41,817 bases of DNA from an uncultured Clostridia bacterium. Lineage in GTDB: Bacteria; Bacillota; Clostridia; Christensenellales; Borkfalkiaceae. The notes under the pieces were generated by a model that saw only the letters and a program-made list of their open reading frames with translations, did no database searches and was not told where the DNA came from. Location: the NCBI GenBank assembly GCA_944359365.1, contig CALVST010000017.1, positions 1 to 41,817 on the forward strand, given 5' to 3'. Each line of letters begins with the position of its first letter. Position 1 is the first letter of the stretch. A program made the position numbers and the translations under genes. Positions 29,268 through 41,817 of this stretch are shown piece by piece.

Positions 29268-30431
29268 ATGGAAAAGGTAAGATTCGGCATCGTGGGGTTA
29301 GGCAATCAGGGTACTTATTATACAAGCCTTTTCGACGATGGGCAGATACCTTTCGGCGAAGTGACCGCCATGTGCGACGTCGCTCCCGCGAAAATCAAAG
29401 CGATGCAGGCGCGGGGAGAACGGCAGGTACAGTATTTCAGCAGTTATAAAAGAATGCTCGACGCGGGTTTGTGCGATGCCGTGCTCATCGAAACCCCGCA
29501 TTATCATCACCCCGAAATTGCCATGGAATGCTTAAAGAGGGGCGTGCACGTTCTGTGCGACAAACCTGCGGGCGTCTATACCGCGCAGGTCAAAGAGATG
29601 AACAGAGCGGCTGCGAAAAGCCGCGCACTGTTCGGAATGATGTTCAACCAACGCACGAACTGCGTGTACCGCAAAATGCGCGATATCATCGCTTCGGGCG
29701 AGATAGGGCGGCTGCAAAGAGTGGTGTGGGTGATCACCCATTGGTTCCGCTCTCAAAGGTATTATGATACGGGCAGCTGGCGCGCCACATGGAACGGAGA
29801 GGGCGGCGGTGTGCTGATCAATCAGTGCCCGCATCAGCTCGACCTTGTGGAGTGGGTGGTCGGCGAGCGGCCTTCCGCCGTGCGCGGTTTTTGCAGTTAC
29901 GGAAAATGGCACGATATCGAAGTGGAAGACGATGTGACCGCCTATTTCGAATATGCGAGCGGCGCTACGGGCGTTTTCGTAACCACGACGGGTGAGGCGC
30001 CCGGCGTAAACAGGTTTGAAATTTCGGGAACGAAGGGCAGGCTCGTCTGTGAAGACGAAAAACTTTATTTTTACAAGAACGCGCAGGACAGCCTTACCTT
30101 TTCGCAGACGACGGAAAAGGTGTTCGGCACGCCCGAAGTTATCGTCGAAGAGCCGGAAACGGACGGGAAAAATCCTCAGCATGCGGGCATCATCAACAAT
30201 TTTGCCGCGGCGATATTGGGGCACGGCTCCCTGTTCGTGCGAGGCGAAGAGGGCATACACAGCGTAGAGCTGATGAACGCGATCGAGCTGTCGGGTTGGA
30301 ACGGCGGCGAACGGATAGAGCTGCCCATCGACGATATGCGATACAAACGGGAACTCGACGCGAAGCGCGCGTTGACCAAAGAAAAGAAAAATGTTGTAGC
30401 CGCGGTGGCAGACACTGCAAACACTTTCTGA
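29268..30431 (+). CDS. Gfo/Idh/MocA-family NAD(P)-dependent oxidoreductase
   Basis: A 387-residue cytoplasmic dehydrogenase. The N-terminal Rossmann motif is GIVGLGNQG (about 7-15), the family Lys motif is CDKPAG (about 92-97; EKP in most members) and the catalytic region is NQCPHQLDLVEW with His and Asp. The ATG at 29268 follows aaggag by 7 nt; the frame is open further upstream, but only across the isomerase end. It would oxidise or reduce a sugar hydroxyl in the pathway fed by the importer and isomerase. Substrate not identifiable. Confidence 0.88.
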   Translation: MEKVRFGIVGLGNQGTYYTSLFDDGQIPFGEVTAMCDVAPAKIKAMQARGERQVQYFSSYKRMLDAGLCDAVLIETPHYHHPEIAMECLKRGVHVLCDKPAGVYTAQVKEMNRAAAKSRALFGMMFNQRTNCVYRKMRDIIASGEIGRLQRVVWVITHWFRSQRYYDTGSWRATWNGEGGGVLINQCPHQLDLVEWVVGERPSAVRGFCSYGKWHDIEVEDDVTAYFEYASGATGVFVTTTGEAPGVNRFEISGTKGRLVCEDEKLYFYKNAQDSLTFSQTTEKVFGTPEVIVEEPETDGKNPQHAGIINNFAAAILGHGSLFVRGEEGIHSVELMNAIELSGWNGGERIELPIDDMRYKRELDAKRALTKEKKNVVAAVADTANTF

Positions 30432-30467
30432 TAAAATATTGACGAAATTGCGGCAAACGTATGCGAT

Positions 30468-30505
30468 AAGCAGCGCCGCCCTGAAAAAAGGGCGGCGCTG
30501 CTTTT
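30468..30505 (+). terminator. Terminator of the AraC-controlled operon
   Basis: A 15-bp stem, aagcagcgccgccct (30468-30482) with agggcggcgctgctt (30489-30503), followed by TT and G. It ends the chromosomal sugar operon; DNA composition changes shortly afterwards. Confidence 0.85.
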
Positions 30506-30533
30506 GATTCTGCCATTATCAGTTAATTGCAAA

Positions 30534-30557
30534 AGCGGCACCCGTAAGGGTGCCGCT
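30534..30557. other. Hairpin at the composition boundary
   Basis: Perfect 10-bp arms agcggcaccc (30534-30543) and gggtgccgct (30548-30557) around gtaa, followed by tggtggtggag. From about 30590 onward the sequence becomes clearly AT-rich. The rest of 30506-30713 holds no gene. It could be the end of an inserted element or a second terminator. Confidence 0.5.
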
Positions 30558-30713
30558 TGGTGGTGGAGAAAAGGGAACGTAAATCGAACAAACTTTTAAA
30601 TATTTTGGGGTTATCATGTTTAAAAATTTACAAACAAAGGCCGATTATGGATTATGGAAAATGTAAAGAAAAACTTCTGTTAATATAAATTATTTGGGAA
30701 AACATATAAGTTA

Positions 30714-30742
30714 TTGAAATATATAGATTGATGTGATATAAT
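30714..30742 (+). promoter_or_regulatory. Predicted promoter of the three-gene DUF4238 cassette
   Basis: TTGAAA (30714-30719), 17-bp spacer, TATAAT (30737-30742). Start near 30749, about 90 nt before the first gene. Confidence 0.7.
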
Positions 30743-30837
30743 TATTTGTAATTATAACACTTGCTAAAACGGATAAAAAAATCAGATTCCGTGGATGTTT
30801 TGCTTCGTATTAGTCAGATCCTTGAATGGAGGAAAAA

Positions 30838-31650
30838 ATGTTTGAATATCTGAAATTGATAGACGAAAAGATATATAATCGTTTTCAGACGGTGGTGCGC
30901 AATATCAAAGCGGCCAGCAATTCCTTTTATGATTCCTATCTGGATATGTTGGAGCAGTTTGTAAAGCTGGTGATTGAAAAAGCGGGATCAGAATTTTTCG
31001 GAACGTGCGGGCAGATGCTTATGCGGCCGGAAATTAAAAATTACTTTTTGGAAACTGTGCGGCTGGATGAGTTTAGTTACAACAAAATGCGCGATTACAC
31101 GCAAAAGATAAATGCGCATAAACACAAAAACGAGAAAAATATAATGCCGGACACGATTGTTACATACATGAAAGTTTTCCACGCGGTAACGAGCGCATAT
31201 GTTTTATATAGCGGAGAAGTAGCCTGCGAGTTTGACGCAAATTATTTTCTTGAGATATTCGGGCAATACGAAAAGTTGAACGATCGTCTCCGCAAAAACG
31301 TAGATGACTTAAGGGCGGAGCTTTCCCACTCTATCGAAGAACATAAAATAAAGGAAGAGGATATCAAGACCTATAAAAAATTATTATCTCAATCAGAAAT
31401 CGATCGTATGTCGCTTGAAGAGCAAACATTGGAATTGTATCATCAGATCAGCGTGTTGAAAGATATCAAACTCTCGTCGATGGAGGAGAAACTGAATAAA
31501 ACCATCGATCTTTTAAATGAACTGACAGAAAGTGTCATTGAAAATCGGGCGATTTCATATGCAGTCGGAGATACTATAGTCGGACAGGAGCTGTTCAAAG
31601 GATATATAGAAAAAGCGAGAAAAACAATCCCGAAAATTTCCGACAAATAG
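30838..31650 (+). CDS. Hypothetical coiled-coil protein, first gene of the accessory cassette
   Basis: A 270-residue soluble protein with no signal peptide or membrane span. Residues about 150-235 are rich in Glu, Lys and Leu heptads (LSHSIEEHKIKEEDIKTYKK, then KLNKTIDLLNELTESVIENR), indicating a coiled coil. The N-terminal half is helical and I recognise no family. The ATG at 30838 follows ggagg; an upstream ATG at 30826 overlaps that site. Codon use is AT-richer than in the flanking sugar genes. It is 61 bp upstream of the membrane-protein gene and may be a sensor or scaffold; that is inference. Confidence 0.7.
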   Translation: MFEYLKLIDEKIYNRFQTVVRNIKAASNSFYDSYLDMLEQFVKLVIEKAGSEFFGTCGQMLMRPEIKNYFLETVRLDEFSYNKMRDYTQKINAHKHKNEKNIMPDTIVTYMKVFHAVTSAYVLYSGEVACEFDANYFLEIFGQYEKLNDRLRKNVDDLRAELSHSIEEHKIKEEDIKTYKKLLSQSEIDRMSLEEQTLELYHQISVLKDIKLSSMEEKLNKTIDLLNELTESVIENRAISYAVGDTIVGQELFKGYIEKARKTIPKISDK

Positions 31651-31711
31651 GGCGGAATAAGCCGAAAATCTGAGCAGAAACGATAAAACCGTCATAACCG
31701 AGAGAGGGAAA

Positions 31712-32488
31712 ATGGATAACTTATTTGAACAAATAGAAGACGTGAAAAAAAGTGTTGACGAAACCAACCAGCAATTAGAAAATATACAAAAAAGTATTGA
31801 CGAAATAAAAAATCATCAAGTCAGTAATTTGATTGGAAAAGAGAAAAGTCAACAAGAGATTTTAAGTGATTTTATCAAGTCATCACGAAAAGAGTACGTC
31901 CATTTATCGACGGATACGGATTTTTCCAAAAGCAAAAAACTCACAAGGTTCGTTCTTCTATGCTATATTGGCATTTCCATATCGGTGACGATCTTGACGA
32001 GTATTGGATTAAAAATATATTCGACATTTACTTTATTTGAGAATATCTGGTTAGTATTGTCTTGTTTTATGGCGCATTATACGTCGGTAGCGCCAAAATT
32101 TTATGAAACGGCAGCGTATGCCAAAAAATCGATTGATCTATTTAAGGTAACGAAAGAAAATGTATGGGGCGATACGTATAGGAAGAAGAAAAAATATAAA
32201 GTATTTTTTGTTCTCTGTTTATTTTGTGCTGGGTTAAATATTGTAGCGTCTTTTACTTTTCCGAATGCAATTACAGGACTTGTAATTGTATTTGAGCTGA
32301 TTTATATAGCGGCAACAATATTTTCATATATCACTTATACTAATTTTTTCTCTTCGTATGGTCCGTTAAAATTTACGGGATACAACTTGTCGAAGAGCAA
32401 GATTGTAACGATTTATTATGATAATTTCTTCGGGAAGTATTTAACAGAAGAAGAATTTTTTAAAACGTATCCGTGGATGAAGAAATGA
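31712..32488 (+). CDS. Hypothetical membrane protein with N-terminal coiled coil
   Basis: A 258-residue protein. Residues 1-35 form a short coiled coil (EDVKKSVDETNQQLENIQKS), and four hydrophobic segments are visible at about 79-101, 110-126, 162-181 and 186-208. Between the pairs is a basic, aromatic region (VWGDTYRKKKKYK). The pair-of-helices plan is reminiscent of SLATT/DUF4231-type membrane effectors, which have only one pair, so this is not an assignment. It overlaps the DUF4238 gene by 4 bp (ATGA), implying coupled translation and joint function. The start ATG follows gagaggg. Confidence 0.7.
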   Translation: MDNLFEQIEDVKKSVDETNQQLENIQKSIDEIKNHQVSNLIGKEKSQQEILSDFIKSSRKEYVHLSTDTDFSKSKKLTRFVLLCYIGISISVTILTSIGLKIYSTFTLFENIWLVLSCFMAHYTSVAPKFYETAAYAKKSIDLFKVTKENVWGDTYRKKKKYKVFFVLCLFCAGLNIVASFTFPNAITGLVIVFELIYIAATIFSYITYTNFFSSYGPLKFTGYNLSKSKIVTIYYDNFFGKYLTEEEFFKTYPWMKK

Positions 32489-33897
32489 AAAATCATTATG
32501 TATCACAGCTTATAATTAGAAGATTTTCAAACGCACTCAATATCTTTAACATTCAAACGGGGAAAATCGACGAGAGCAAGAGAGCGGAAAAAATTTTTTA
32601 CAAAAGGGACGCTTTTGATGAGGATATTGAAAAAATACTTAATTTTAATATTGAAAGCAGAGTCGCCAACCTTTTAGATCAGAAAATTTGCGGGAAGTCG
32701 CAAATTATTTTGACGCGAGAAGAGATCCATGTGCTCAAGTGCTATATGCTCATAAACAGTATCAGAAGCATGTGCTGGGATTATGCCGCGTTTGGGGAGA
32801 TGATGCGCGGATTTTTGAAAAATGCATATGAGTATATTTCAATATTTGACGAGTATAAAAAGTTGCCGGATCTAACGCAAGTTTCGATTTCGGATGAAGA
32901 GCTGTTTTCGAGGACGTTGAAAGTATTTGCCTCAGCGAAGAACGTTAAGGGTTTAATCGAAGATCCGTTGGCAACAAAGGAAATGTTGGGGTGGGCGATC
33001 CCGTTTTTCAAATCGTATATCGGATTTTGGGATGCTCCTTCAAATAAAGAATTTATCTTGACCGATAACGGCATGGCAAGCGAGTATGAAGGCTTTCATC
33101 AGATAACCGGAGGGATAGATATATCAAAGATGTCTTATCTTATGAACCGTATCCGAAAAGGAGAGGTGGGGCATTTAGACGTATTTGCAACCGATATGGT
33201 CATGTTTGAGAATTTCGATTGTTTTATAATTAATTCGAAAAGGATGATGGTTATGATCAATCCTTTTTTCAGGTTATATCATAATCAACAAGTCTTTATC
33301 GAAGACAAAACGGAAACGTTGCCCGTGCCCGATATCTGGCCGGCTGTGATACAGGACAGGACATTGTTTGACGTCCCCAACAACCAATACAAAATTTCTC
33401 CTCGTTTTTTTGACGATCAGGATTTATTTATATATAGTGTAAAGACTTTGTCCGAGGAAGATTATATTTATTTGAATGAATTGAATTTAGGGGATGCAAG
33501 GGATACGATTGGATTTAACGATCCGCTTTGTATTATAGATACAATTTATTACCATATTTGGAAAATTGCAAATTATAAATCCGTTAAATCCTTACAGGAT
33601 AGCGTATACGCAGTCGCCTGTCGTTTGATGGAAGAAGTGGCTAAATCACCATATCATTCGTTGATTGCGTATTGCGAAAGCAAGAGCGGGCGCAACGTGA
33701 CAGATTTTATTGATTTGTTTGAGAAGCTAACAAATAATATTTATAAAGATTTTAACGAAAATCCGTATATCTGTGAATATTACTTAGAGCGGAAAGAACA
33801 AACTATAAACTTTCCGTTGCTAGACTTCTTGGGAAAAGGAGAAAAGAAGATAGAATTTTTCAAACGGCATTTACAAGAAATTTTAAACAATAAATAG
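32485..33897 (+). CDS. DUF4238 domain-containing protein
   Basis: A 470-residue soluble protein. The N-terminus KNHYVSQLIIRRFSN matches the hallmark of DUF4238 (typically HYVPQFyLRrF), an uncharacterised family often found in accessory and mobile-element DNA. A second typical feature is the region around MVMINPFFRLY (about residues 250-260). It is longer than many family members. The ATG at 32485 overlaps the preceding stop; a GTG at 32473 would extend it by four residues. No known toxin or nuclease motif is evident, although conserved N-terminal His/Tyr and Arg residues could form an active site. Last gene of a three-gene unit. Confidence 0.75.
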   Translation: MKNHYVSQLIIRRFSNALNIFNIQTGKIDESKRAEKIFYKRDAFDEDIEKILNFNIESRVANLLDQKICGKSQIILTREEIHVLKCYMLINSIRSMCWDYAAFGEMMRGFLKNAYEYISIFDEYKKLPDLTQVSISDEELFSRTLKVFASAKNVKGLIEDPLATKEMLGWAIPFFKSYIGFWDAPSNKEFILTDNGMASEYEGFHQITGGIDISKMSYLMNRIRKGEVGHLDVFATDMVMFENFDCFIINSKRMMVMINPFFRLYHNQQVFIEDKTETLPVPDIWPAVIQDRTLFDVPNNQYKISPRFFDDQDLFIYSVKTLSEEDYIYLNELNLGDARDTIGFNDPLCIIDTIYYHIWKIANYKSVKSLQDSVYAVACRLMEEVAKSPYHSLIAYCESKSGRNVTDFIDLFEKLTNNIYKDFNENPYICEYYLERKEQTINFPLLDFLGKGEKKIEFFKRHLQEILNNK

Positions 33898-33901
33898 AAA
33901 A

Positions 33902-33930
33902 CGACATCCAATCATAAAGAGAGGATGTCG
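33902..33930 (-). terminator. Terminator of the xre gene
   Basis: Stem cgacatcc (33902-33909) with ggatgtcg (33923-33930). The xre stop codon lies in the loop, and on the minus strand the stem is followed by TTTTCTATTT. Confidence 0.65.
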
Positions 33931-34133
33931 GAAACGGCAATACCAAAGAAATCGGCGATTTGTTCGATGGTGGAAAGGCGGTCAATACCGTGATTGATCC
34001 ATCTGCCGACCGTGCGAACGTCAGTACCGAACTCATAAGCGAATTCTTCCTGTGTTTTATAGCTGGATTGTTTGATAAGCCGTTTTAGATTTGCCCCGGC
34101 GACTAAGCCAAGACTTTGATATTTTTGTTCCAT
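33912..34133 (-). CDS. Small Xre-family helix-turn-helix regulator
   Basis: A 73-residue protein that is almost entirely one HTH domain (TQEEFAYEFGTDVRTVGRWI, about 28-47). The ATG at 34133 follows a strong aaggagg site. It is convergent with the DUF4238 gene (14-bp gap) and divergent from the seven-gene nrd/methyltransferase operon, so it is a likely local repressor of one or both units, possibly autoregulated through the palindrome over its ribosome-binding region. Confidence 0.85.
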   Translation of the reverse strand: MEQKYQSLGLVAGANLKRLIKQSSYKTQEEFAYEFGTDVRTVGRWINHGIDRLSTIEQIADFFGIAVSDILSL

Positions 34134-34147
34134 AATATCAACCTCCT

Positions 34148-34164
34148 TTGCTTAGCCTAGGCAA
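34148..34164. promoter_or_regulatory. Imperfect palindrome upstream of xre
   Basis: ttgcttagcctaggcaa: the outer ttgc/gcaa and inner tag/cta are symmetric. It lies just upstream of the xre ribosome binding site, a plausible autoregulatory operator. Confidence 0.35.
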
Positions 34165-34264
34165 ATGCTCCGGAGACTTCTATTAAGAACAATTTGATTA
34201 TATCATAATCAGACAAGGAAGTCAATAAATGCCGAAAAAACGATTCATATCAAACAATGCAAAA

Positions 34265-34283
34265 CAGGACAAAACGTGTCCTG
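34265..34283. promoter_or_regulatory. Perfect inverted repeat upstream of the nrd operon (candidate operator)
   Basis: CAGGACA-aaacg-TGTCCTG. Seven-bp arms with a 5-bp spacer are typical for a dimeric Xre-type or similar regulator. It sits between xre and the first operon gene, about 57 bp upstream of the ATG at 34340 and about 20 bp before an extended -10-like tgttaaaat (34302-34310). Confidence 0.5.
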
Positions 34284-34339
34284 TACCATCGATCATTGTT
34301 ATGTTAAAATATGCTCACAAAAGCAAAAGGAGAGGGACA

Positions 34340-34771
34340 ATGATCGACAACGGAAAAAAGTATTTTGAAGTTGTTGCAAAGTGCGGACATGTAGGAAGGC
34401 GTAATTGTATTATGATTCACTTTGCGGTTGTGGCGTCTGACGGAAAACATGCGGCTGCCGAGGTAAAAAGATATAAGCGTGTGAAGAGAGATCACAAGAA
34501 CTGTATTCAAAGCGTTACCGAAATTTCCTTTGCGCAGTTTATGACGTTGAGAGCAAAGAACGATGCGGATCCGTACCTCCATTGCAAGTCGAAGTGGCAA
34601 CAGAAGCAGATCGAAGGATTTGAGGATCGTTTGGAACCCGACGTGTACAATTTGCTTAGGGCAATAAAAAAAACGGACAGACAAGAGAGCAGGAAGTATC
34701 GAAGAAAAAAACTTTTTTATGCCGAAAAGGCAGACTTTGAAGAGATAGAGGCATATTCATTTGGCGGATAA
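34340..34771 (+). CDS. Conserved small protein of unknown function at the head of the nrd operon
   Basis: A 143-residue soluble, basic protein. It starts with CGHVGRRNCIMIHFAV and contains KRVKRDHKNCIQSVTEIS and DPYLHCKSKWQQKQIEGF. I recall similar proteins as conserved hypotheticals in Bacillota but know of no function. Cys13, Cys20 and Cys105-type residues with His14 could bind metal. The start ATG at 34340 has an aaggagaggg site; the frame is open 37 codons further, but without a better site. It is 10 bp upstream of nrdG. Confidence 0.7.
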   Translation: MIDNGKKYFEVVAKCGHVGRRNCIMIHFAVVASDGKHAAAEVKRYKRVKRDHKNCIQSVTEISFAQFMTLRAKNDADPYLHCKSKWQQKQIEGFEDRLEPDVYNLLRAIKKTDRQESRKYRRKKLFYAEKADFEEIEAYSFGG

Positions 34772-34781
34772 AGGGGAAAAG

Positions 34782-35231
34782 ATGAAAGTTTATATCAATT
34801 CTATCTTGTTTAACAGAAGTCTTGTCGACGGCCCGGGAGTGCGGACTGTAGTGTTCTTTCAAGGATGCGATCTTCATTGCAAGGGTTGCCAGAACCCTTC
34901 TTCCTGGGATATTCGGCAGGGAACGGAAATGGAAGTGGAAGATCTGGCAGCGATACTTGAGCAAAACTGCTTGAATAAAAAAGTGACGATTTCGGGCGGA
35001 GAACCTTTGTTTCAGAAAGAAGCGCTTTTGGAGCTTGCAGAGCGCTTGAAAGGGTTTGATATCGCCGTATATACCGGTCATGAGGAGAAGGACGTTCCTC
35101 AGGATTTATACCGTTACATTACGTATATCAAGACGGGAAAGTTCGTGCAGGAACTTAAGACGACAGTGATGCCATATGTCGGGTCAACTAATCAGCGGTT
35201 CAGGAGGGTGGACGATGCAAAAGTGCAATGA
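34782..35231 (+). CDS. nrdG: Anaerobic ribonucleotide reductase activating protein (radical SAM)
   Basis: NrdG uses an iron-sulfur cluster and S-adenosylmethionine to create the glycyl radical on NrdD. The protein is 149 residues, normal length. The cluster motif is CDLHCKGC (Cys29, Cys33, Cys36), preceded by DGPGVRTVVFFQGC, and the SAM-binding GGEP element is TISGGEPLF. The ATG at 34782 follows aaagggga. The end overlaps nrdD by 17 bp. Confidence 0.93.
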   Translation: MKVYINSILFNRSLVDGPGVRTVVFFQGCDLHCKGCQNPSSWDIRQGTEMEVEDLAAILEQNCLNKKVTISGGEPLFQKEALLELAERLKGFDIAVYTGHEEKDVPQDLYRYITYIKTGKFVQELKTTVMPYVGSTNQRFRRVDDAKVQ

Positions 35232-36903
35232 AAATGCCGCCGACAGATACAGTTATGTCGGCGAAGTGTACTCGATCGGAGAGAGAGCGAGAAAGAACGA
35301 AATTTTGCAGGGGCTGGCTCCTTCCTGGAAAGTGTTGCACGAAAAGGGATACATCCATATTCACGATCTGGATGCTTACGGGCTCACGTATAATTGTCTG
35401 ACCTTCAATCTGCTCAAAGATTTTCCCTACGACAAATTTAAAGAGTATTCGACTGAAAGAAAGATCGTTGCGTATTTTGATTATTTGAAAAGTTTGTTTT
35501 CCGAGATGGGCAACGAGCAGTCGGGCGGTATGGCACTCGCGAATTACGATATCGATACGGCTAAAATCTTTACGGCTCTGCAGGTGGACATTTGTGCGAA
35601 TGAACAACTGATAAAAGCGTGTACAGTTGACCTTATTGAGTGGTGTAACAATACGCACACGAGGATGGGGCAGACGAGTTATTATGTCACACTGAATATC
35701 GGGCTGGCCGATACCGAGGCGGCAAGGGAAATCGCCCGGATCCTGCTGGATGAATTTGCAGACAGCGGCGATCTTGTGTTCAAGCCGAACATTGTTTTTA
35801 AAGTGCATGACGGCGTCAACGCGAAAGAGGGTGACAGAAACTTCGATCTGTTCCGAAAGGCGCTTTTGTGCACGGCAAAGAAAATGATCCCCACCTATCT
35901 GCTGTGCGACTGTACTTGCGATCGGTCGGTCGATCCCGAAAAACTTGCCGTTATGGGGTGCCGTACGCGGGTCGTTGCCAACATTTACGGGGAGGATTCG
36001 TCTGTCGGCAGGGGGAATATCGACAATATTTCCATCAATCTCCCCAGACTTGCGTTGGAAACCGTGCAAGAAAATCCTACGGCGGATGCCGAACGGCTCG
36101 TGCAGTTGTTTACGCAAAAATGGGATGAAGTGGCAAGGGAAACGAAGGACATTTTGCTGGACCGATTTTCAAAAGTCTGCGCGCGGGAGGTGTCTGATTT
36201 TCCCATCAACAGGAACCATCGTTTGTGGCTCCGAAAATTCGATAATGTGCGTGAAGTGTTCAAAAACGGCACTCTTTCGCTCGGATTTATCGGACTTTCC
36301 GAAGCGATGGAAGTGTTGACGGGGAAAAGATTTTACGAGGACGCCGATGTTTACGTGTACGCGCTGGGGTTTGTAAAACATATGCGCGGTTATTGCGACT
36401 TTTTGCGCGAAGAGTATCGACTCAACTTTTCGCTGCTGGCTACGAGCGGCGAACTCATCAGCGGAAGATTCATCGATATCGACAGGACGTTGTTTGCAAA
36501 TGTGAACGGTATTTTCGATAAAGGCTTTTATACAAATTCGTTTCATATCAATGTGGACAGCGATTTGCCTGCATATCGTAAAATTCAGTTGGAAGGGCTG
36601 TTTCACGAACTATGCAACGGCGGGTGCATCACATACATTGAATTGAAAGAGGCGCCTATCGGCAATGACGAAGGGTTGCGCGAACTTGTCGGAATTGCCG
36701 TGAAGTCGGGTACGCATTATCTCGGGTTTAACTTTCCGAAGGACGTATGCGACGATTGCGGAACGTCGGGAGTATTTGACGTTTGCCCCGTCTGCGGCAG
36801 CGATCGCATAACGAGGGTTCGGAGAGTGAGCGGGTATCTGGAAATCCTGGACGGTTTTACCGAAGGCAAGAAAAACGAAGTGAAGGCGCGCAAGGAGAAT
36901 TGA
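35215..36903 (+). CDS. nrdD: Anaerobic (class III) ribonucleoside-triphosphate reductase
   Basis: Makes deoxyribonucleotides from ribonucleoside triphosphates under anoxic conditions. At 562 residues it is shorter than the common form of about 700, because the N-terminal ATP-cone that senses dATP is absent; the protein starts directly with the reductase core (YSYVGEVYSIGERARKNE). The C-terminal zinc site is Cys512, Cys515, Cys524, Cys527, and the radical-bearing glycine is Gly540 in RVSGYL. The ATG at 35215 has an aggaggg site inside the end of nrdG. Loss of the ATP-cone suggests activity without the usual dATP shut-off, as in some phage and mobile-element enzymes. Confidence 0.93.
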   Translation: MQKCNENAADRYSYVGEVYSIGERARKNEILQGLAPSWKVLHEKGYIHIHDLDAYGLTYNCLTFNLLKDFPYDKFKEYSTERKIVAYFDYLKSLFSEMGNEQSGGMALANYDIDTAKIFTALQVDICANEQLIKACTVDLIEWCNNTHTRMGQTSYYVTLNIGLADTEAAREIARILLDEFADSGDLVFKPNIVFKVHDGVNAKEGDRNFDLFRKALLCTAKKMIPTYLLCDCTCDRSVDPEKLAVMGCRTRVVANIYGEDSSVGRGNIDNISINLPRLALETVQENPTADAERLVQLFTQKWDEVARETKDILLDRFSKVCAREVSDFPINRNHRLWLRKFDNVREVFKNGTLSLGFIGLSEAMEVLTGKRFYEDADVYVYALGFVKHMRGYCDFLREEYRLNFSLLATSGELISGRFIDIDRTLFANVNGIFDKGFYTNSFHINVDSDLPAYRKIQLEGLFHELCNGGCITYIELKEAPIGNDEGLRELVGIAVKSGTHYLGFNFPKDVCDDCGTSGVFDVCPVCGSDRITRVRRVSGYLEILDGFTEGKKNEVKARKEN

Positions 36904-36905
36904 CG

Positions 36906-37481
36906 TTGAAACATATTGCAATCGAAGGAATGGACGGCGTCGGAAAGACGACAACGGGAAAATTGCTGGCACAAAAGCTCGGGTATGAATTTGTCGACAA
37001 GAACCTCCGCTTTTTGTTCGACGAAGGGGACAGTTATGAAAACTACTTCCATATCCGCGACAAAGTGAACGCTTCCCCGGACAGATTGTTTACATCCTGG
37101 TTTTACGGGTTGGGGAATATTTATCTTCATACGGTGTTTTCGGATAAAAATATCGTCACGGACAGGTATTTGTTGTCCAACTATGCGTGGAGCGGTACGG
37201 AAGACAATATCGAAGTTTACGACCTGTTGGTGAAGAAACTTGGATTTCCCGATCTGACGGTCATTTTATACGCAGACGATATGGCGATCGCCAACCGCAT
37301 TCTCGGCAGAGACATAGAGGATACGGATATAGAAAAAGTGAAGCTGGCAAGAGAAAAGTATGAGAAAATGATCTGCTTTTGCGAACATTACAAAATGCCG
37401 TATATGGTGATCGACAGCAGCGTGCTCTCACCCGATGAAGTCGTGGAACTGATCTTAAAGCGAATAGAGGGGCGGGAATGA
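36906..37481 (+). CDS. Deoxynucleoside monophosphate (thymidylate-like) kinase
   Basis: A 191-residue P-loop kinase. Walker A is GMDGVGKTT (8-16), the DR motif is TDRYLLSNYAW, and a lid-like region is RILGRDIEDTD. It resembles dTMP kinases and deoxynucleoside kinases. It begins with TTG at 36906, only 2 bp after the nrdD stop, with aaggag upstream. In this operon it would phosphorylate dNMPs, possibly including unusual ones, to supply dNTPs. Exact substrate uncertain; the housekeeping tmk is expected elsewhere. Confidence 0.82.
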   Translation: MKHIAIEGMDGVGKTTTGKLLAQKLGYEFVDKNLRFLFDEGDSYENYFHIRDKVNASPDRLFTSWFYGLGNIYLHTVFSDKNIVTDRYLLSNYAWSGTEDNIEVYDLLVKKLGFPDLTVILYADDMAIANRILGRDIEDTDIEKVKLAREKYEKMICFCEHYKMPYMVIDSSVLSPDEVVELILKRIEGRE

Positions 37482-37993
37482 TTTTTTATACCTCCGACCT
37501 GCATTTTGGGGACGAACGGATCCTGAGATTATCTTGCAGGCCGTTTGCCTCTGTTGAAGAAATGGACGCCGTCCTGATCAGGAATTGGAACCAAACGGTC
37601 TCGGAAGAGGATACCGTTTACATTTTAGGAGATCTTGCCTTTAATGACGAAGCGGCGCAAAAAGTCAAAGAGCTGAAAGGCAGAAAGACCCTGTTGTTGG
37701 GCAATCACGATGCGGGGCTGACGTTGAAGACGCTAAACTGTTTTGAGCGGGTGGATAAAATCATGACGATCACAGACGGAGGATATTCCGTGTGCTTGTG
37801 TCACTATCCGTTGCTCAGCTATGAAAATTCGATTTATGGCGGGTATCATGTATTCGGACATCTGCATAACAATGAGGACGATCCCGCTTCCGTGATTATG
37901 AAAAGTTTTCCGAGATCCCTTCCCTGCGGCGTCGATGTCAACGGTTTTACCCCGAAGACTTTGGCGCAGTTGATCGATGCGCACAGGAGATGA
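37478..37993 (+). CDS. Metallophosphoesterase
   Basis: A 171-residue calcineurin-like phosphoesterase. The motifs are in order: DLH (7-9), GDLAF, GNHD, CHYP and GHLHN. The family hydrolyses phosphomono- or diesters, often nucleotides or 2',3'-cyclic phosphates. It overlaps the kinase gene by 4 bp (ATGA), so production is coupled to nucleotide kinase; opposing kinase and phosphatase activities could tune a nucleotide pool. Confidence 0.88.
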   Translation: MIFYTSDLHFGDERILRLSCRPFASVEEMDAVLIRNWNQTVSEEDTVYILGDLAFNDEAAQKVKELKGRKTLLLGNHDAGLTLKTLNCFERVDKIMTITDGGYSVCLCHYPLLSYENSIYGGYHVFGHLHNNEDDPASVIMKSFPRSLPCGVDVNGFTPKTLAQLIDAHRR

Positions 37994-37997
37994 AAGA

Positions 37998-39653
37998 ATG
38001 ATCAGCAAGGACATGAAATACACTGCGCTCTATTGGGCGCTCGGCTTTGAAGAAGTCGATCAGGATATTTACCGTAAAATATATCCTCAGGCGCAAATTG
38101 TGATTAATGCGAACAAGCAAACGGTTGATTGCGGCGACGGGATCGCCGTGCTCGGCGATACGTGCAGATTTCTGAAAAGGCACAAGGACTTTGTCATTCT
38201 GGAATGTGTGGATCGGCTTTTAAAAAAATGCTATGCTCCCGAAGATGTCGTCGTGGACGGGAGAACTGGGTGTCCCGATCTTCACCTGAAAGGCGCAGAC
38301 ATCATCTGCGAACAATGGGGGAAGGATTATCAGGAAAAATTAAAAATTTTTCATCCGAAAAAAGGAATTGTCGTATTGTATACGTCCAGACTCGTGAGCG
38401 GGTTATTGGAGTACAAAAATTGTATTTCCCGCGATGGGAAATTGTGGGACAAGGGGATCTTCGAGGAAGAAATTCAGCCATACAAATGGAACTTTTCGCA
38501 ATTTAAAACGGAAGCTTTTCCGCAAGCGGAACAAAAAGGCCTTCAGATTTTTGAGAGAGAACTCATATTTTATGGCGGAACGGATCAGTGCGTTGTCGTC
38601 CCAGAAGGAATTACTTCCATTGCGGCAAGTGCTTTCTGGAACAATACCTGCATTGAAGAAGTCGTATTGCCGCAGAGTCTTGAAAAGTTGGGCGGAGATT
38701 GCTTTTACTACTGCAAAAATCTAAAAAAAGTTAACATTCCGAAAAATGTGCGTGTCATGGGCGATAATCCTTTTGCAGGGTGCCCGAAACTGGAAATAAC
38801 AAACGAAAGTCCGAATTTTGTTTTGCAGGACGGCGTTCTGTATAACAAAGAGAAAACGATGATCATCTATTATCCGATGAAAAATTCCGCGGAAAAATTT
38901 ACAATTCCGAACGGGGTCGAAATTGTGGGCAAGCATAGTTTCTTTGCGTGTAACAATTTAAGGAAGATCGTCATTCCTTCTTCCGTTATTCTATTGAAGA
39001 ACAACCCCTTTTCCGGGTGCGAACAGTTGGAAGTGGAAAATCATTCTCCTAACTATATTATCGATGGCGGTGTGATCTATAACAAATATATGACGTCAGT
39101 TATCGGCTGCCTGAACGGGACAAAGGCAGAAGAGATCGTTCTTCCCGAAACACTCACGGCTATCAATCGAAATTCGTTCTGGAATTGTAAAGGTATCAAA
39201 AAACTTGTGATTCCCCGAAGTGTTACGAGGATTGGATACAATCCCTTTGCGGGGTGTGAAAATATGTTACTGTGCGGTGAGCCGACAGGTTATCAGATAC
39301 AGGACGGAATTATTTTTTCTTCCGATAAATCGGCGTTGTGCTGCGCAACGGATCGAGCAGTCGGGGAGAAATACGTTGTGCCCGGTGGAGTAAAGACAAT
39401 CAACCGCGGCGTATTCAGTGGATGCAAAAGACTGAAAAAGATCGACTTGAACGAGGTGACCTGCATCGATAAGAGTGCTTTTACGAATTGCGTAAGCCTG
39501 GAAACAGTATTTATACCGAATGGCGTAACGTATATCGGGGAATGGGTTTTTGCCTATTGTGTCAATCTGAAGCAAGTCTGCATTCGGAGGGGAACGAAGG
39601 TCGATCGGAACGCATTCAACGAATGTCCCGCTGAAATTGTATGGAGAGATTGA
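37998..39653 (+). CDS. Restriction-enzyme-like N-terminal domain fused to BspA-type leucine-rich repeats
   Basis: A 551-residue soluble protein from the ATG at 37998 (aggaga upstream). Residues about 5-190 resemble the N-terminal domain found before the methylase in some SAM-dependent DNA methyltransferases/type I-like restriction proteins: FVILECVDRLLKKCYAPEDV, a PDLHLKGADIICEQWGKDY segment in the place of the nuclease core (normally D...ECKTWGKEY), IVVLYTSRL and GIFEEEIQPY. The expected Glu-x-Lys is degenerate (CEQ), so cleavage may be lost. From about 200 to the end are LRR_5 repeats with three super-repeats of about 80 residues (NPFAGCPKLE, NPFSGCEQLE, NPFAGCENML). No signal peptide, unusual for BspA-type repeats. 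It overlaps the DNA methyltransferase gene by 1 bp. Confidence 0.7.
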   Translation: MISKDMKYTALYWALGFEEVDQDIYRKIYPQAQIVINANKQTVDCGDGIAVLGDTCRFLKRHKDFVILECVDRLLKKCYAPEDVVVDGRTGCPDLHLKGADIICEQWGKDYQEKLKIFHPKKGIVVLYTSRLVSGLLEYKNCISRDGKLWDKGIFEEEIQPYKWNFSQFKTEAFPQAEQKGLQIFERELIFYGGTDQCVVVPEGITSIAASAFWNNTCIEEVVLPQSLEKLGGDCFYYCKNLKKVNIPKNVRVMGDNPFAGCPKLEITNESPNFVLQDGVLYNKEKTMIIYYPMKNSAEKFTIPNGVEIVGKHSFFACNNLRKIVIPSSVILLKNNPFSGCEQLEVENHSPNYIIDGGVIYNKYMTSVIGCLNGTKAEEIVLPETLTAINRNSFWNCKGIKKLVIPRSVTRIGYNPFAGCENMLLCGEPTGYQIQDGIIFSSDKSALCCATDRAVGEKYVVPGGVKTINRGVFSGCKRLKKIDLNEVTCIDKSAFTNCVSLETVFIPNGVTYIGEWVFAYCVNLKQVCIRRGTKVDRNAFNECPAEIVWRD

Positions 39654-40480
39654 TGAAAAATTTGATTATCGAAAGTGAAAATATAATCGCGTTGCAAAGA
39701 CTCTTGCCCGAATATGAAGGGAAAATCGATGTGATCCCCATCGATCCTCCGTACAATACGGATATTTCTTATATCGAGTATCAGGATACAATAGACGATT
39801 GGTTCGCTTTCATGAGAGAAAGACTGTCGCTAGCCTATCGTCTGCTCGCAGAAAAAGGCGTTGCTTTCATTCATATCGATGAAAATGAACTGATCAATCT
39901 TGTCAGGCTCTGCGCGGACATGTTCGGAGCAGAGAATATCATGACCTTGGTATGGAAGAAGACAAATAAACTGTTTGACAAAAACAGGAGAGAAAAGCCG
40001 TTGGAAAGCGGCGTAAAAAGGACGCACGAATACGTTTTACTCTGTTTCAAGGACAGAAAGAACACTGTTTTACATCCGATCAGACAGCCGTATTGGAATG
40101 GAAAAGGATTGTCGGAAGAGGAGAAACCGTTGGAAACAGTGTTCGATTTTCTGGGAACGACCAGTTCTGCAAAGGATGAACTGTACGAATTGTTGGGTAG
40201 TAGGGATATTTTTTCTACGCCGAAACCTGTCAAGCTGATCAAAGAATTCATACGCTCTGCGTCAGATCAAAACTCGATCGTACTGGATTTTTTTGCGGGG
40301 AGCGGTACAACGGGGCACGCCGTAATGGATCTAAACAAAGAGGACGGCGGGCAAAGGAAATTTATTCTTGTCACAAATAGTGAAAACAATATTTGTCGGC
40401 GTGTAACAATCCCGCGCATCAAAGCCGCAATCTTAAAAAACGGTTATGCAGAGGAATTTGAATATTATCAAATAAAATAA
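39653..40480 (+). CDS. Beta-class DNA methyltransferase (N6-adenine or N4-cytosine), orphan
   Basis: A 275-residue enzyme. The catalytic motif DPPYNT (31-36) comes before the SAM-binding motif FAGSGTTG (214-221), the order of the beta class, as in type III Mod proteins. It is much shorter than Mod (usually above 600 residues), and no res gene is nearby. The region at about 100-205 would carry target recognition. The ATG at 39653 overlaps the previous stop, with ggagag upstream. It may partner with the preceding REase-like/LRR protein or act alone to protect the element's DNA. Confidence 0.88.
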   Translation: MKNLIIESENIIALQRLLPEYEGKIDVIPIDPPYNTDISYIEYQDTIDDWFAFMRERLSLAYRLLAEKGVAFIHIDENELINLVRLCADMFGAENIMTLVWKKTNKLFDKNRREKPLESGVKRTHEYVLLCFKDRKNTVLHPIRQPYWNGKGLSEEEKPLETVFDFLGTTSSAKDELYELLGSRDIFSTPKPVKLIKEFIRSASDQNSIVLDFFAGSGTTGHAVMDLNKEDGGQRKFILVTNSENNICRRVTIPRIKAAILKNGYAEEFEYYQIK

Positions 40481-40547
40481 ATATCAAAAAGAGAAAGCGT
40501 TCTTCTTTAGAAAATAGTTGGTTTTGCGGGTTAAATAGGAAAAAACC

Positions 40548-40632
40548 AGTTGGCAGTTAGGCGTGAGCTTGTCATAGACGAGTGCGGCGGCGCTACGCGC
40601 CGCCGCAGACAAGCTCACGCCTAAAGCCAACT
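40548..40632. repeat. Large two-tier inverted repeat (about 85 nt)
   Basis: Outer arms agttggc (40548-40554) and gccaact (40626-40632), then a 17-bp perfect stem ttaggcgtgagcttgtc (40557-40573) with gacaagctcacgcctaa (40608-40624), a 9-nt one-sided bulge atagacgag, and an inner 11-bp stem tgcggcggcgc (40583-40593) with gcgccgccgca (40597-40607). There is no U tract on either side. The shape suits a recombination, transfer-origin or structured-RNA element rather than a simple terminator. Confidence 0.8.
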
Positions 40633-40710
40633 AAAACAAAACAATTCATGCGGTGCGGAAAAGCATCCGTTCCAAACGGACGAAACAAGAAAAACATGCC
40701 GCTACAGCAA

Positions 40711-40780
40711 AGCCCGCCGCGAAAAAGGCATCCGCGCTGACCCGCTTGCGGATTGCCTTTTTTATCGCGGCGGGCGGGCT
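40711..40780. repeat. Nested inverted repeats with an internal terminator-like stem
   Basis: Outer arms agcccgccgcga (40711-40722) and tcgcggcgggcgggct (40765-40780) enclose an inner stem aaaggcatccgc (40724-40735) with gcggattgcctttttt (40748-40763), which ends in a T run. It could terminate transcription from the methyltransferase operon. The flanking 40481-40547, 40633-40710 and 40781-40889 hold no gene. Confidence 0.65.
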
Positions 40781-40889
40781 TTCTTAGCAAGGACTGTGTA
40801 TTTTTGTTCGTTCGCATTGCGTGTTCTCTTGAATTGTGGATAACCGGAAAAATTTTTCTAAATTTTCCTAAAAATATGTGAACATATGT

Positions 40890-40918
40890 TTGACTTTTTC
40901 TTTTGTAAGGTGTATAAT
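40890..40918 (+). promoter_or_regulatory. Predicted strong promoter of the recombinase leader
   Basis: TTGACT (40890-40895), 17-bp spacer, TATAAT (40913-40918). The palindrome aacatatgtt (40881-40890) abuts the -35 box and could be an operator. The predicted start, 40925, is the A of a short reading frame's ATG. Confidence 0.75.
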
Positions 40919-40924
40919 ACCCGT

Positions 40925-40957
40925 ATGCACCTGAAAAGGGGCACTGCAACTGAATAA
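40925..40957 (+). CDS. Putative 10-residue leader peptide
   Basis: ATG at 40925 to TAA at 40955-40957 encodes MHLKRGTATE. The ATG lies exactly at the predicted transcription start, so it would be translated without a leader. Its place at the front of a long leader with a terminator suggests translation-linked attenuation. No protein evidence; the assignment rests on position only. Confidence 0.4.
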   Translation: MHLKRGTATE

Positions 40958-41162
40958 GAGAGCTGATTTATGATTTGATTGAATTGAGTGAAAGAATAGA
41001 TTAGCCGTGAAGCGATACCATTGATATTGTAGCGGGCAAAAAAAGCCGCGCCGTTACCCCGAGCGTAAGAGTCGGGGCGGGGTCGTTATCTTCAAGGGCA
41101 TAACATAAAAGAAAGAAACTAACTGACAGTGATTTCTCTCTTTTGTGCTATGCCCTTTTTTT
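40958..41162 (+). ncRNA. Structured leader RNA with attenuator upstream of a recombinase gene
   Basis: About 200 nt between promoter and gene with no open frame of note. It contains a GC-rich stem, accccga/gtcggggt type (about 41056-41083), and ends in a long terminator hairpin (41094-41162). It probably controls the downstream recombinase by premature termination. No known riboswitch class recognised. Confidence 0.55.
41094..41162 (+). terminator. Attenuator terminator in the recombinase leader
   Basis: Left arm aagggcataacataaaaga (41094-41112) pairs imperfectly with tcttttgtgctatgccctt (41139-41157), followed by an uninterrupted T run to 41162. The long stem and strong U tract make it an efficient terminator. 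Confidence 0.8.
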
Positions 41163-41164
41163 CG

Positions 41165-41198
41165 TGCAAATTTTATCTTCGGAGGACAAAAATTTGCA
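41165..41198 (+). promoter_or_regulatory. Hairpin exposing a ribosome-binding-like loop
   Basis: Perfect 10-bp arms tgcaaatttt (41165-41174) and aaaatttgca (41189-41198); the loop contains cggagg. It follows the attenuator directly. It is too far from the recombinase ATG (41314) to serve it; the frame after the loop has no close ATG. Confidence 0.45.
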
Positions 41199-41313
41199 GG
41201 GAAAAAAGACTCAAGATTTTATTGTAACAGCGATAGGGAAGGGAAAGACTATGCGTTTCCGTTTGTTTGGTCTCCGCCGAAAGACGAAAAATCAAAGAAA
41301 AAGGAGGAGCAAT

Positions 41314-41562
41314 ATGCAGGGTAAAAAAGTAATAAAAACAGCAGTCATCTATGCGAGGTATTCTTCTGACAGTCAGACAGAACAGTCTATCGAGGGGCAG
41401 CTTCGTGTCTGTGAAGAATATGCGCAAAAAAATGATATTTTGATTCTGGATACTTATATCGATCGTGCTATGACGGGCACGAACGATAACCGTCCTGATT
41501 TTCAGCGTATGATTAAGGATAGCAATCGAAAAGAATGGACGTATGTTATTGTAAAGACATAA
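41314..41562 (+). pseudogene. N-terminal fragment of a large serine recombinase
   Basis: 82 residues from the ATG at 41314 (strong aaaggaggag site). The serine-recombinase start is intact: TAVIYARYSSDSQTEQSIEGQL with the catalytic Ser in ARYSSD, then YIDRAMTGTNDNRPDFQRMIKD. The frame stops after YVIVKT, where complete enzymes continue with a (Y)KLDRFSR-type motif; full enzymes have about 500-560 residues. The remainder is missing from this strand, so it cannot recombine DNA. The frame is open further upstream, but the ribosome binding site fixes the start. Confidence 0.85.
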
Positions 41563-41605
41563 ATTTATGGACACTCTCAAAATAAAGGTATCAGAGGCAT
41601 AAAGT

Positions 41606-41636
41606 AAGCGTATGAGTTCGGTCAACCCATACGCTT
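41606..41636. terminator. Hairpin between the two recombinase fragments
   Basis: Arms aagcgtatg (41606-41614) and catacgctt (41628-41636) with a 13-nt loop. It lies just after the end of the minus-strand recombinase and before a GTTGTTATTT stretch on the plus strand, so it may terminate either gene. The U tract is weak. Confidence 0.5.
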
Positions 41637-41640
41637 GTTG

Positions 41641-41817
41641 TTATTTATCGGAATTATTGAGTTTATACCGTAAGACGGAAGCTATATCGACTTTGTACAC
41701 GATATCTATTTCACGTTCTTTGCCCGTGATTTTCGGCAAGCCGCCTACGATGATACGGTCTATCAGCTCATAGCACATCTCGCGGGTAAGTTCCGGCGCT
41801 TCGAGATACTTCTTGAT
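41641..41817 (-). CDS. C-terminal part of a serine recombinase (DUF4368-type tail), partial
   Basis: A minus-strand frame enters from the right edge and ends at 41641. The 58 visible residues include LTREMCYELIDRIIVGG and KEREIDIVYKVDIAS, which match the DUF4368 C-terminal region of large serine recombinases from Clostridial mobile elements. Whether the gene is complete lies beyond the window. Confidence 0.75.
   Translation of the reverse strand: MKKYLEAPELTREMCYELIDRIIVGGLPKITGKEREIDIVYKVDIASVLRYKLNNSDK

What the first reader, a model, noticed from the sequence alone, without database searches (positions are those of the whole stretch)
37998..40480. REase-like domain fused to leucine-rich repeats, coupled to an orphan DNA methyltransferase
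The N-terminal ~190 residues of the LRR protein resemble the restriction-type domain that precedes the methylase in some type I/IIG-like proteins (FVILECVDRLL..., LYTSRL, GIFEEEIQPY), but the nuclease Glu-x-Lys is degenerate and the methylase half is replaced by BspA-type repeats. The next gene, overlapping by 1 bp, is a stand-alone beta-class methyltransferase. LRR_5 repeats are normally found on secreted proteins; this one is cytoplasmic. The pair could be a remodelled restriction-modification or self/non-self recognition system in which LRRs provide a protein-binding surface.
Basis: partly seen in the sequence, partly recalled or inferred. Interest (0 to 1): 0.75.

Follow-up and report, generated by a model that had tools for sequence, protein, structure and literature searches.

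The report
Dead restriction nuclease–LRR–methyltransferase in nucleotide operon
A gut-bacterial protein that joins a burnt-out restriction-enzyme domain to leucine-rich repeats pairs with a DNA methyltransferase (in several relatives the two are one protein) and, in the cases seen, sits behind its own deoxynucleotide-making genes.

Summary
Residues 1-~182 of the LRR protein are a PD-(D/E)xK-type N-terminal domain of type IIG/IIB restriction enzymes: match to a PADLOC type IIG model, hhalign 99.2% to five type IIG-like proteins, and the two confident Foldseek hits among the 50 listed are BsaXI. ExK is lost in 17 of 17 LRR relatives and present in 5 of 5 type IIG-like proteins. The methyltransferase coupling is real: a separate next gene in 5 of 17 loci, fused in one ~810-aa protein in 7, not found nearby in 5. 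Best reading: a nuclease-dead, restriction-derived DNA-modification enzyme carried with its own anaerobic ribonucleotide reductase module on mobile, sometimes prophage-linked, islands. Its biological role (defence, anti-restriction, element upkeep) is unproven.

The parts
37998..38543 (+). N-terminal domain (~residues 1-182): degenerate PD-(D/E)xK domain of type IIG/IIB restriction enzymes
   Evidence: PADLOC REase_MTase_IIG E 1.7e-9; hhalign 99.2% vs five type IIG-like N-termini, ExK lost; AF2 model pLDDT 80.3 with H-E-E-E-H-E core; Foldseek BsaXI prob 1.00/0.97
38544..39653 (+). BspA-type LRR_5 repeats (~residues 183-551)
   Evidence: PF13306 E 1.9e-56; lies between N-domain and MTase in one chain in 7 of 17 loci
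39653..40480 (+). beta-class DNA methyltransferase, type III Mod-like core without the large Mod target-recognition insert
   Evidence: PF01555 E 1.8e-42; PADLOC MTase_III E 2.2e-58; Mbo45V match 5.1e-32, 156 residues between the matched halves of the Mod against 49 here; DPPY and FAGSGT in 12 of 12 aligned relatives
37478..37993 (+). metallophosphoesterase of the operon
   Evidence: phrog_547 phosphoesterase E 3.6e-44; separate gene in 11 of 17 loci, window counted
36906..37481 (+). dTMP kinase-like P-loop kinase of the operon (TTG start set by eye)
   Evidence: PF02223 E 1.1e-12 on the longer ORF; DGxGKxT and DR conserved in alignment of 16; co-occurs with N-LRR
35215..36903 (+). NrdD-like class III ribonucleotide reductase, short (start set by eye)
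   Evidence: PF13597 E 5e-105; full-length alignment with T4 NrdD; GCR, glycyl and Zn-Cys patterns in 17 of 17; one of three NrdDs of this genome
34782..35231 (+). NrdG-like radical-SAM activase
   Evidence: PF13353 E 1.7e-26; CxxxCxxC in the sequence
34229..34771 (+). conserved operon-leading ORF of unknown function (true start may lie further in, near 34340)
   Evidence: relatives upstream of the operon in 9 of 17 loci, window counted, aligning from residue ~37-44; no Pfam match above cut-off
33912..34133 (-). XRE/HTH regulator beside the operon
   Evidence: HTH_26 E 5.9e-5; relatives just upstream in 8 of 17 loci, window counted, divergent in 4 and co-directional in 4
32473..33897 (+). DUF4238 protein, associated upstream gene (not core)
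   Evidence: PF14022 E 1.3e-12; 5 of 17 loci, window counted
41143..41562 (+). truncated serine recombinase N-terminus flanking the operon
   Evidence: PF00239 E 6.6e-14; 73% identical over 74 aa to a 492-aa ORF in L028

Best explanation
The pair is a nuclease-dead modification enzyme rebuilt from restriction-modification parts. A type IIG/IIB-type PD-(D/E)xK domain that has lost its catalytic ExK (shown) is joined to a BspA-type LRR solenoid (shown), which is coupled to a small type III Mod-like methyltransferase (coupling shown by natural fusions; adenine specificity inferred from DPPY and Mod kinship). I infer that the dead nuclease domain now serves as a DNA- or partner-binding module, that the LRR is the fixed scaffold or docking surface in place of the Mod target-recognition insert, and that the complex methylates DNA without cutting it. 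It is probably co-transcribed (inferred from tight packing) with a dedicated anaerobic ribonucleotide reductase, its activase, a dTMP kinase and often a phosphoesterase, so the whole set is inferred to be a mobile module that makes or adjusts deoxynucleotides and marks the DNA made with them.
For: Fold and ancestry: PADLOC type IIG match at residues 1-85; long type IIG-like ORFs are the only other hits of the family profiles at E up to 0.001: 3 of 396, 2 of 391 and 0 of 398 genomes; hhalign 99.2%, E 2.8e-19; Foldseek BsaXI at ranks 1-2 with prob 1.00/0.97, the other 48 listed (of 555) at most 0.18. Dead nuclease: Glu of ExK in 1 of 17 and Lys in 0 of 17 LRR proteins, ECK in 5 of 5 type IIG-like. 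Coupling: fusion in 7 of 17 loci, overlap or adjacency in 5; LRR and MTase diverge in step (r 0.865, 12 loci). MTase motifs intact 12 of 12. Operon: NrdG, NrdD and Tmk upstream on the same strand in 17 of 17; the same 8 genomes hold operon-type Tmk (292-347 bits, next 112) and N-LRR. Window genes ORF180 to MTase are packed with overlaps or gaps of at most 10 bp. NrdD patterns kept 17 of 17. N-domain dN/dS about 0.17-0.23 in four pairs, three of them among the same three loci and with dS near 1.
Against: Five of 17 loci show no MTase in the fetched 11-20 kb; the two scanned have LRR proteins with glycosyltransferase or AAA domains there, so N-LRR has a role that does not always need this MTase. 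No Foldseek E-value for the N-domain is below 0.001 and TM to BsaXI is 0.45; PDB sequence search with its profile found nothing. Small beta-class MTases such as M.MboIIA (260 aa, a hit) suggest that the LRR need not supply targeting. No base-modifying enzyme acting on free nucleotides was seen among the scanned operon genes. The promoter/terminator scan says nothing clear on co-transcription (16 promoter-like sites, 10.7 expected). No activity is shown.
Confidence: 0.58

Rival explanations
1. The whole operon is an anti-phage defence system: the dead nuclease-LRR protein senses invaders, the MTase marks self or the target, and the NrdD/NrdG/Tmk/phosphoesterase set alters the nucleotide pool or makes a nucleotide analogue, in the manner of viperin-kinase pairs.
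For: Sporadic (8 of 396 genomes of the order), AT-rich location (41.9% vs 50.6% GC); DUF4238 gene upstream in 5 of 17 loci, a domain with one tested anti-T7 protein (PMC9122126, passage); Tmk matches PADLOC PDC-M51B (E 2.2e-14) and VakA (4.4e-12), NrdG matches pVip (6.7e-5); some flanking genes match defence models, e.g. type I restriction models in L005 (9.9e-11).
Against: No PADLOC model hits NrdD, the phosphoesterase, w30826, w31712 or this DUF4238 protein; NrdD keeps the patterns of an ordinary reductase; DUF4238 was seen in only 5 of 17 loci.
Confidence: 0.25
2. It is an accessory module of temperate phages and satellites: dNTP supply plus an orphan MTase that shields the element from host restriction.
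For: Complete operon in phage NatCom_17901 between serine recombinases; a viral contig (L057) with recombinase pair-HTH-NrdG-NrdD-MPE-Tmk up to its end; recombinases or their remnants within a few kb in 6 of 18 loci.
Against: NatCom_17901 is the only one of 50,697 phage records with a match to this Tmk and the only one with a match over 80% of the LRR protein. Five IMG/VR scans with N-domain, N-LRR or MTase queries gave no N-LRR locus, only two generic LRR matches and three more distant MTases (seeds are short patterns, so misses are likely). The two genes before the island, 28.5-30.4 kb, look like sugar metabolism. Of ten other window proteins scanned with PHROGs four had hits, to unknown families or Ig-like structural ones, so phage kinship of the wider window is not excluded.
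Confidence: 0.27
3. The N-domain is still a nuclease with shifted catalytic residues, so the pair is a working restriction-modification system.
For: PD-(D/E)xK order in the model; E69 in the first long helix invariant in 17; in a part of the relatives the first Asp is kept.
Against: ExK lost in 17 of 17, and the stretch after it is shortened; first Asp lost in several members.
Confidence: 0.05
4. Chance neighbours: an LRR protein that happens to lie next to an orphan MTase.
For: No MTase near it in 5 of 17 loci.
Against: Seven fusions and five adjacent pairs across Clostridia, Bacilli and Treponema bins.
Confidence: 0.02

Closest known systems
Type IIG / IIB restriction-modification enzymes (BsaXI; PADLOC REase_MTase_IIG)
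   Same: N-terminal PD-(D/E)xK-type domain together with an adenine-type methyltransferase in chain or operon
   Different: ExK lost; MTase is beta-class Mod-like (PF01555), not N6_Mtase (PF02384); LRR repeats stand where spacer and target-recognition parts would be (recalled layout); RNR/kinase genes attached
Type III Mod subunits (Mbo45V, EcoP15I)
   Same: closest solved MTases by sequence and fold
   Different: 275 aa instead of 567-644, large insert between the matched halves missing, no Res gene seen beside it in the window
BspA-type LRR_5 proteins
   Same: repeat type; solved cell-surface LRR proteins match the model
   Different: joined to restriction and methyltransferase domains; N-terminus is not an export signal by eye
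Orphan methyltransferase DnmA of Bacillus subtilis
   Same: MTase with restriction-type neighbours that does not protect from phage (PMC9973331, passages incl. one from the abstract)
   Different: other domain make-up, no LRR, no nucleotide operon
Prokaryotic viperin-kinase and DUF4238 defence genes
   Same: radical-SAM plus nucleotide kinase; DUF4238 gene nearby
   Different: partial profile hits only; NrdG/NrdD looks like an ordinary reductase pair

Membership tests
Type IIG restriction-modification enzyme | N-terminal PD-(D/E)xK nuclease fold | tested here: met
Type IIG restriction-modification enzyme | catalytic D..(D/E)xK residues | tested here: not met
   ExK in 0 of 17
Type IIG restriction-modification enzyme | gamma-class N6_Mtase and target-recognition domain in the same chain | tested here: not met
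   MTase is PF01555 beta-class; LRR_5 follows the N-domain
Type III restriction-modification (Mod) | Mod-like beta-class MTase core | tested here: met
Type III restriction-modification (Mod) | large target-recognition insert | tested here: not met
   49 vs 156 residues against Mbo45V
Type III restriction-modification (Mod) | Res helicase-nuclease partner gene | tested here: inconclusive
   none among the window ORFs listed or scanned around the pair; flanks of the relatives were scanned only in part; L005 has a gene with partial type I restriction matches about 7 kb upstream
DNA adenine methyltransferase | motifs IV (DPPY) and I (FxGxG) | tested here: met
   12 of 12
DNA adenine methyltransferase | methylation of DNA at a motif | not testable with these tools
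   needs methylome or assay
BspA-type secreted LRR protein | export signal / surface location | tested here: inconclusive
   N-terminus is the restriction-type domain and the chain continues into an MTase in 7 of 17 relatives, but no signal-peptide predictor was run
Known anti-phage system (PADLOC 2.0.0) | match of the component set to a listed system | tested here: not met
   only partial hits to single components; models were scanned protein by protein, not as systems
Class III ribonucleotide reductase | NrdD catalytic Cys, glycyl radical site, Zn site; NrdG radical-SAM Cys | tested here: met
   loose patterns in 17 of 17 NrdD, residue alignment with T4 NrdD for the window, CxxxCxxC in the window NrdG

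The most novel reading that the evidence does not exclude
A new kind of system that couples deoxynucleotide synthesis to DNA marking: a dedicated anaerobic ribonucleotide reductase, kinase and phosphatase hand over to a nuclease-dead LRR scaffold with exchangeable modifying partners (methyltransferase in one branch, glycosyltransferase-LRR in the other), used by mobile elements for defence or for protecting their own DNA.
Probability: 0.3. Interest if true: 0.9.

Novelty: new variant of a known kind. Interest (0 to 1): 0.7.

Why it matters
LRR repeats built into a restriction-derived DNA methyltransferase were not described in any paper listed by searches (judged from titles and abstract starts), and the steady link to a private ribonucleotide reductase and dTMP kinase suggests that nucleotide supply and DNA modification are run as one mobile function. 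If true, it offers a testable reason why some gut mobile elements carry an extra class III reductase, and a case in which LRRs act inside a bacterial cell on nucleic-acid enzymes.

Tried and rejected
Pfam, PHROGs and NCBIfam on the N-domain alone: nothing. Family profile against PDB chain sequences: 21 hits at E up to 10, best 0.39, mostly ankyrin designs, taken as chance; the fold search gave BsaXI instead. Foldseek against viral models (BFVD): nothing below E 0.001, best listed E 0.1. Plasmid records: no N-domain match at E up to 1, only LRR matches from residue 167 on among the 8 of 25 records listed for the whole protein. IMG/VR: no N-LRR locus in five scans; L040-L044 were not looked at further; the Tmk query found L057 and five distant kinases. 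Idea that the operon is ordinary phage nucleotide metabolism: apart from NatCom_17901 the listed phage NrdDs are about 29-32% identical (15 of 2,809 records listed), so not the main reading; kept as a rival for element cargo. Attachment-site repeats: no shared direct word of 12-30 bases between 30301-30830 and 40481-41817. NrdD tree with the two other NrdDs of the genome: their branches are too long to place. Literature (listings only: 20 of 25, 2 of 2, 14 of 14 and 12 of 14 papers): none on this gene set by title and abstract start; one search did not find the source paper of the phage.

Limits. The 8 N-LRR genomes come from draws of 396 and 392 genomes of the order, probably but not provably the same; one search scored at most 8 candidates per genome. 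L006-L008 share 77-81% DNA identity over the operon, and L012 (Treponema bin) and L033 (Clostridiales bin) 82% over 10.9 kb, so 17 loci are not 17 independent events and a binning error in one of the latter cannot be excluded. L011, L014 and L002 were taken as the same place as L033, from contig length and position, and counted once. Of the five type IIG-like proteins only that of G073 was domain-scanned; the others are called so from length, ECK and shared sequence. Several starts (relatives, and NrdD and Tmk of the window) were set by me by eye; one search used places one codon inside for those two. In L009 the NrdD frame opens only at about residue 65 of the window's NrdD, so that gene may be broken or mis-sequenced there. 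The NrdD pattern for the second Cys (NC) is so loose that it proves little. L057 is cut after Tmk and says nothing on N-LRR. In L026 and L027 the contig begins at the operon, so missing upstream genes there mean little.
Full report
Observation. The ORF at 37998-39653 (+) encodes 551 aa: about 182 residues without Pfam, PHROG or NCBIfam match, followed by BspA-type LRR_5 repeats (E 1.9e-56); 39653-40480 (+) encodes a 275-aa beta-class methyltransferase (PF01555, E 1.8e-42), stop and start overlapping by one base.

What the N-domain is. PADLOC's type IIG model PDLC03624 matches residues 1-85 at model positions 1-85 with E 1.7e-9, a second one with 4e-5. Profiles of the family hit, besides its own members, only long ORFs of 1061-1273 aa: 3 in 396 genomes of the order, 2 in 391 of the class, 0 in 398 of the phylum. 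The one that was domain-scanned (first 600 aa) carries HSDR_N_2 (24.9 bits, cut-off 25) within the matched stretch, then N6_Mtase and Eco57I domains. hhalign between the 17 LRR-protein N-domains and the five long ORFs gives 99.2%, E 2.8e-19. The AlphaFold model (10 sequences, pLDDT 80.3) runs helix 62-76, strands 84-87, 95-97, 100-106, helix 109-116, strand 124-133, the usual order of a PD-(D/E)xK core (recalled). Foldseek against the PDB ranks two BsaXI entries first with probability 1.00 and 0.97; the other 48 listed of 555 hits have at most 0.18. E-values are modest, 6.6e-3 and 8.5e-3, and TM is 0.45 and 0.44. PDB sequence search with the profile found nothing.

Dead nuclease. All five type IIG-like proteins keep D and ECK. 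Of the 17 LRR proteins, Glu stands at its place in 1 and Lys in 0 (that one, L028, has ExR); a Trp four positions after the lost Glu is invariant in the 17 and present in 2 of the 5; the stretch after the motif is shortened. In relatives the N-domain evolves under purifying selection: NG86 dN/dS about 0.23, 0.23, 0.20 (three pairs among L006-L008, dS near 1) and 0.17 (L012/L033); the fifth pair is saturated. So it is kept for something other than cutting by this motif.

Coupling to the methyltransferase. I collected 17 distinct loci: the window, phage NatCom_17901, eight from the species-genome collection (nine found, one taken as the same place as G100) and seven genomes of the window's order. 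In 5 of 17 the MTase is a separate next gene, in 7 it is fused into one 806-830-aa protein N-domain-LRR-MTase, and in 5 no MTase match lies in the 11-20 kb fetched. The fused L008 protein folds with fair confidence (pLDDT 83.9); its parts match Mbo45V Mod (E 1.4e-14) and surface LRR proteins (4gt6, E 5e-13). LRR and MTase distances correlate at 0.865 over 12 loci (MTase with N-domain 0.587, with NrdD 0.438); mean LRR and MTase identities are close (63.6/63.0, 60.2/63.4, 45.9/46.1%), with the N-domain changing fastest (48.2, 41.7, 36.9%). DPPY and FAGSGT are invariant in 12 of 12. Against Mbo45V Mod the stretch between the two matched halves is 49 instead of 156 residues, so the large insert, where Mod enzymes have their target-recognition domain (recalled), is missing; small beta-class enzymes without it exist.

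In 17 of 17 loci NrdG, NrdD and a dTMP kinase-like gene lie upstream on the same strand, with at most the phosphoesterase between them and N-LRR; the phosphoesterase is a separate gene in 11 of 17. Further up, window counted: ORF180 in 9, an XRE regulator in 8 (divergent in 4, co-directional in 4), w30826 in 7, DUF4238 in 5 and w31712 in 3 of 17. In the window the genes from ORF180 to MTase overlap or are at most 10 bp apart. A dTMP-kinase profile of the operon finds 8 strong hits (292-347 bits) in 392 genomes of the order, the next being 112 bits; they are the 8 genomes that hold the N-LRR protein. In 291 genomes of the class only the window's own genome reached the limit. The operon NrdD keeps GCR, glycyl and zinc patterns in 17 of 17; one of the genome's two other NrdDs is 22% identical to the window's, the other gave no BLAST match at E 1e-5. 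Of the five loci without MTase two were scanned (L025, L033): N-LRR is followed there by proteins with glycosyltransferase, Sel1, LRR_5, phosphoesterase and AAA matches, and NrdG is fused to a HAD hydrolase. Four of the seven fused loci have a DEDDh-type exonuclease gene next (L006 by Pfam, L028 by PADLOC, L008 and L029 by similarity).

Mobility. The stretch 30500-41560 has 41.9% GC against 50.6% for the 30 kb before it. Serine recombinases or remnants lie within a few kb of the operon in the window, L004, L006, L028, L029 and the viral contig L057, that is 6 of 18 loci; the L029 one is a weak C-terminal match (27%). NatCom_17901 carries the whole operon between recombinases at one end of a 57-kb record with terminase, portal, head and tail genes. 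It is the only one of 50,697 phage records with a match to this kinase. L057 carries recombinase pair, HTH gene, NrdG, NrdD, phosphoesterase and kinase, then ends. Bins from Clostridia, Bacilli, Treponema and Acholeplasmataceae hold it, with 82% DNA identity over 10.9 kb between a Treponema and a Clostridiales bin, which fits transfer between phyla or a binning error.

How it most likely works. Shown: the domain ancestry, the loss of ExK, the coupling, the recurring operon, the kept reductase and MTase motifs. Inferred: the complex methylates adenine in DNA; the dead nuclease domain binds DNA or a partner; the LRR is a constant docking scaffold; the reductase and kinase provide or tune dNTPs for the element that carries it. 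Whether the end is defence, shielding from restriction, or element upkeep cannot be settled here. The DUF4238 neighbour hints at defence (one such protein protects against T7, PMC9122126, passage read), but it was seen in 5 of 17 loci only.

Known or new. It fails tested marks of type IIG (catalysis, MTase class) and of type III (insert), so it is not filed as either; it is a restriction-derived variant. PADLOC gives hits to single components only, and literature searches (listings only, open-licence library) showed no description.

Noticed in passing
window 30826-31650 and 31712-32488: Two associated upstream genes without Pfam hit above cut-off or PADLOC hit: 30826 is coiled-coil-like and recurs at 7 of 17 operon loci, 31712 has hydrophobic, probably membrane-spanning stretches by eye and recurs at 3 of 17.
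   Followed up: partly
L033 12899-18630, L025 11610-16983: In the branch without MTase, the N-LRR gene is followed by glycosyltransferase-Sel1-LRR(-phosphoesterase) and AAA-LRR proteins, so several LRR_5 proteins with different enzyme domains share one gene cluster.
   Followed up: partly
L006 10536-11624, L008 10526-11710, L028 11778-12908, L029 11412-12665: A DEDDh/DnaQ-type exonuclease gene follows the fused N-LRR-MTase gene in four of seven fused loci.
   Followed up: partly
L012 and L033: 82% DNA identity over 10.9 kb of this operon between a Treponema bin and a Clostridiales bin: recent transfer between phyla or a binning error.
   Followed up: no
window 41143-41562 (+) and 41640-41817 (-): A truncated serine recombinase N-terminus faces a stretch on the other strand that looks by eye like a recombinase C-terminus, at the contig end.
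   Followed up: no
window 34229-34771: Operon-leading ORF, conserved in 9 of 17 loci, no Pfam match above cut-off; weak PADLOC hit to a type II restriction enzyme model (E 3.2e-4).
   Followed up: no
L005 2-1111, L024 471-1352: Flanking genes with partial PADLOC matches: type I restriction models (9.9e-11) and mad6/PD-T4-6 kinases (2.5e-8).
   Followed up: no
window 11730-13583: 617-aa protein with a strong match to phrog_23782 of unknown function (E 4.6e-180), far from the island.
   Followed up: no
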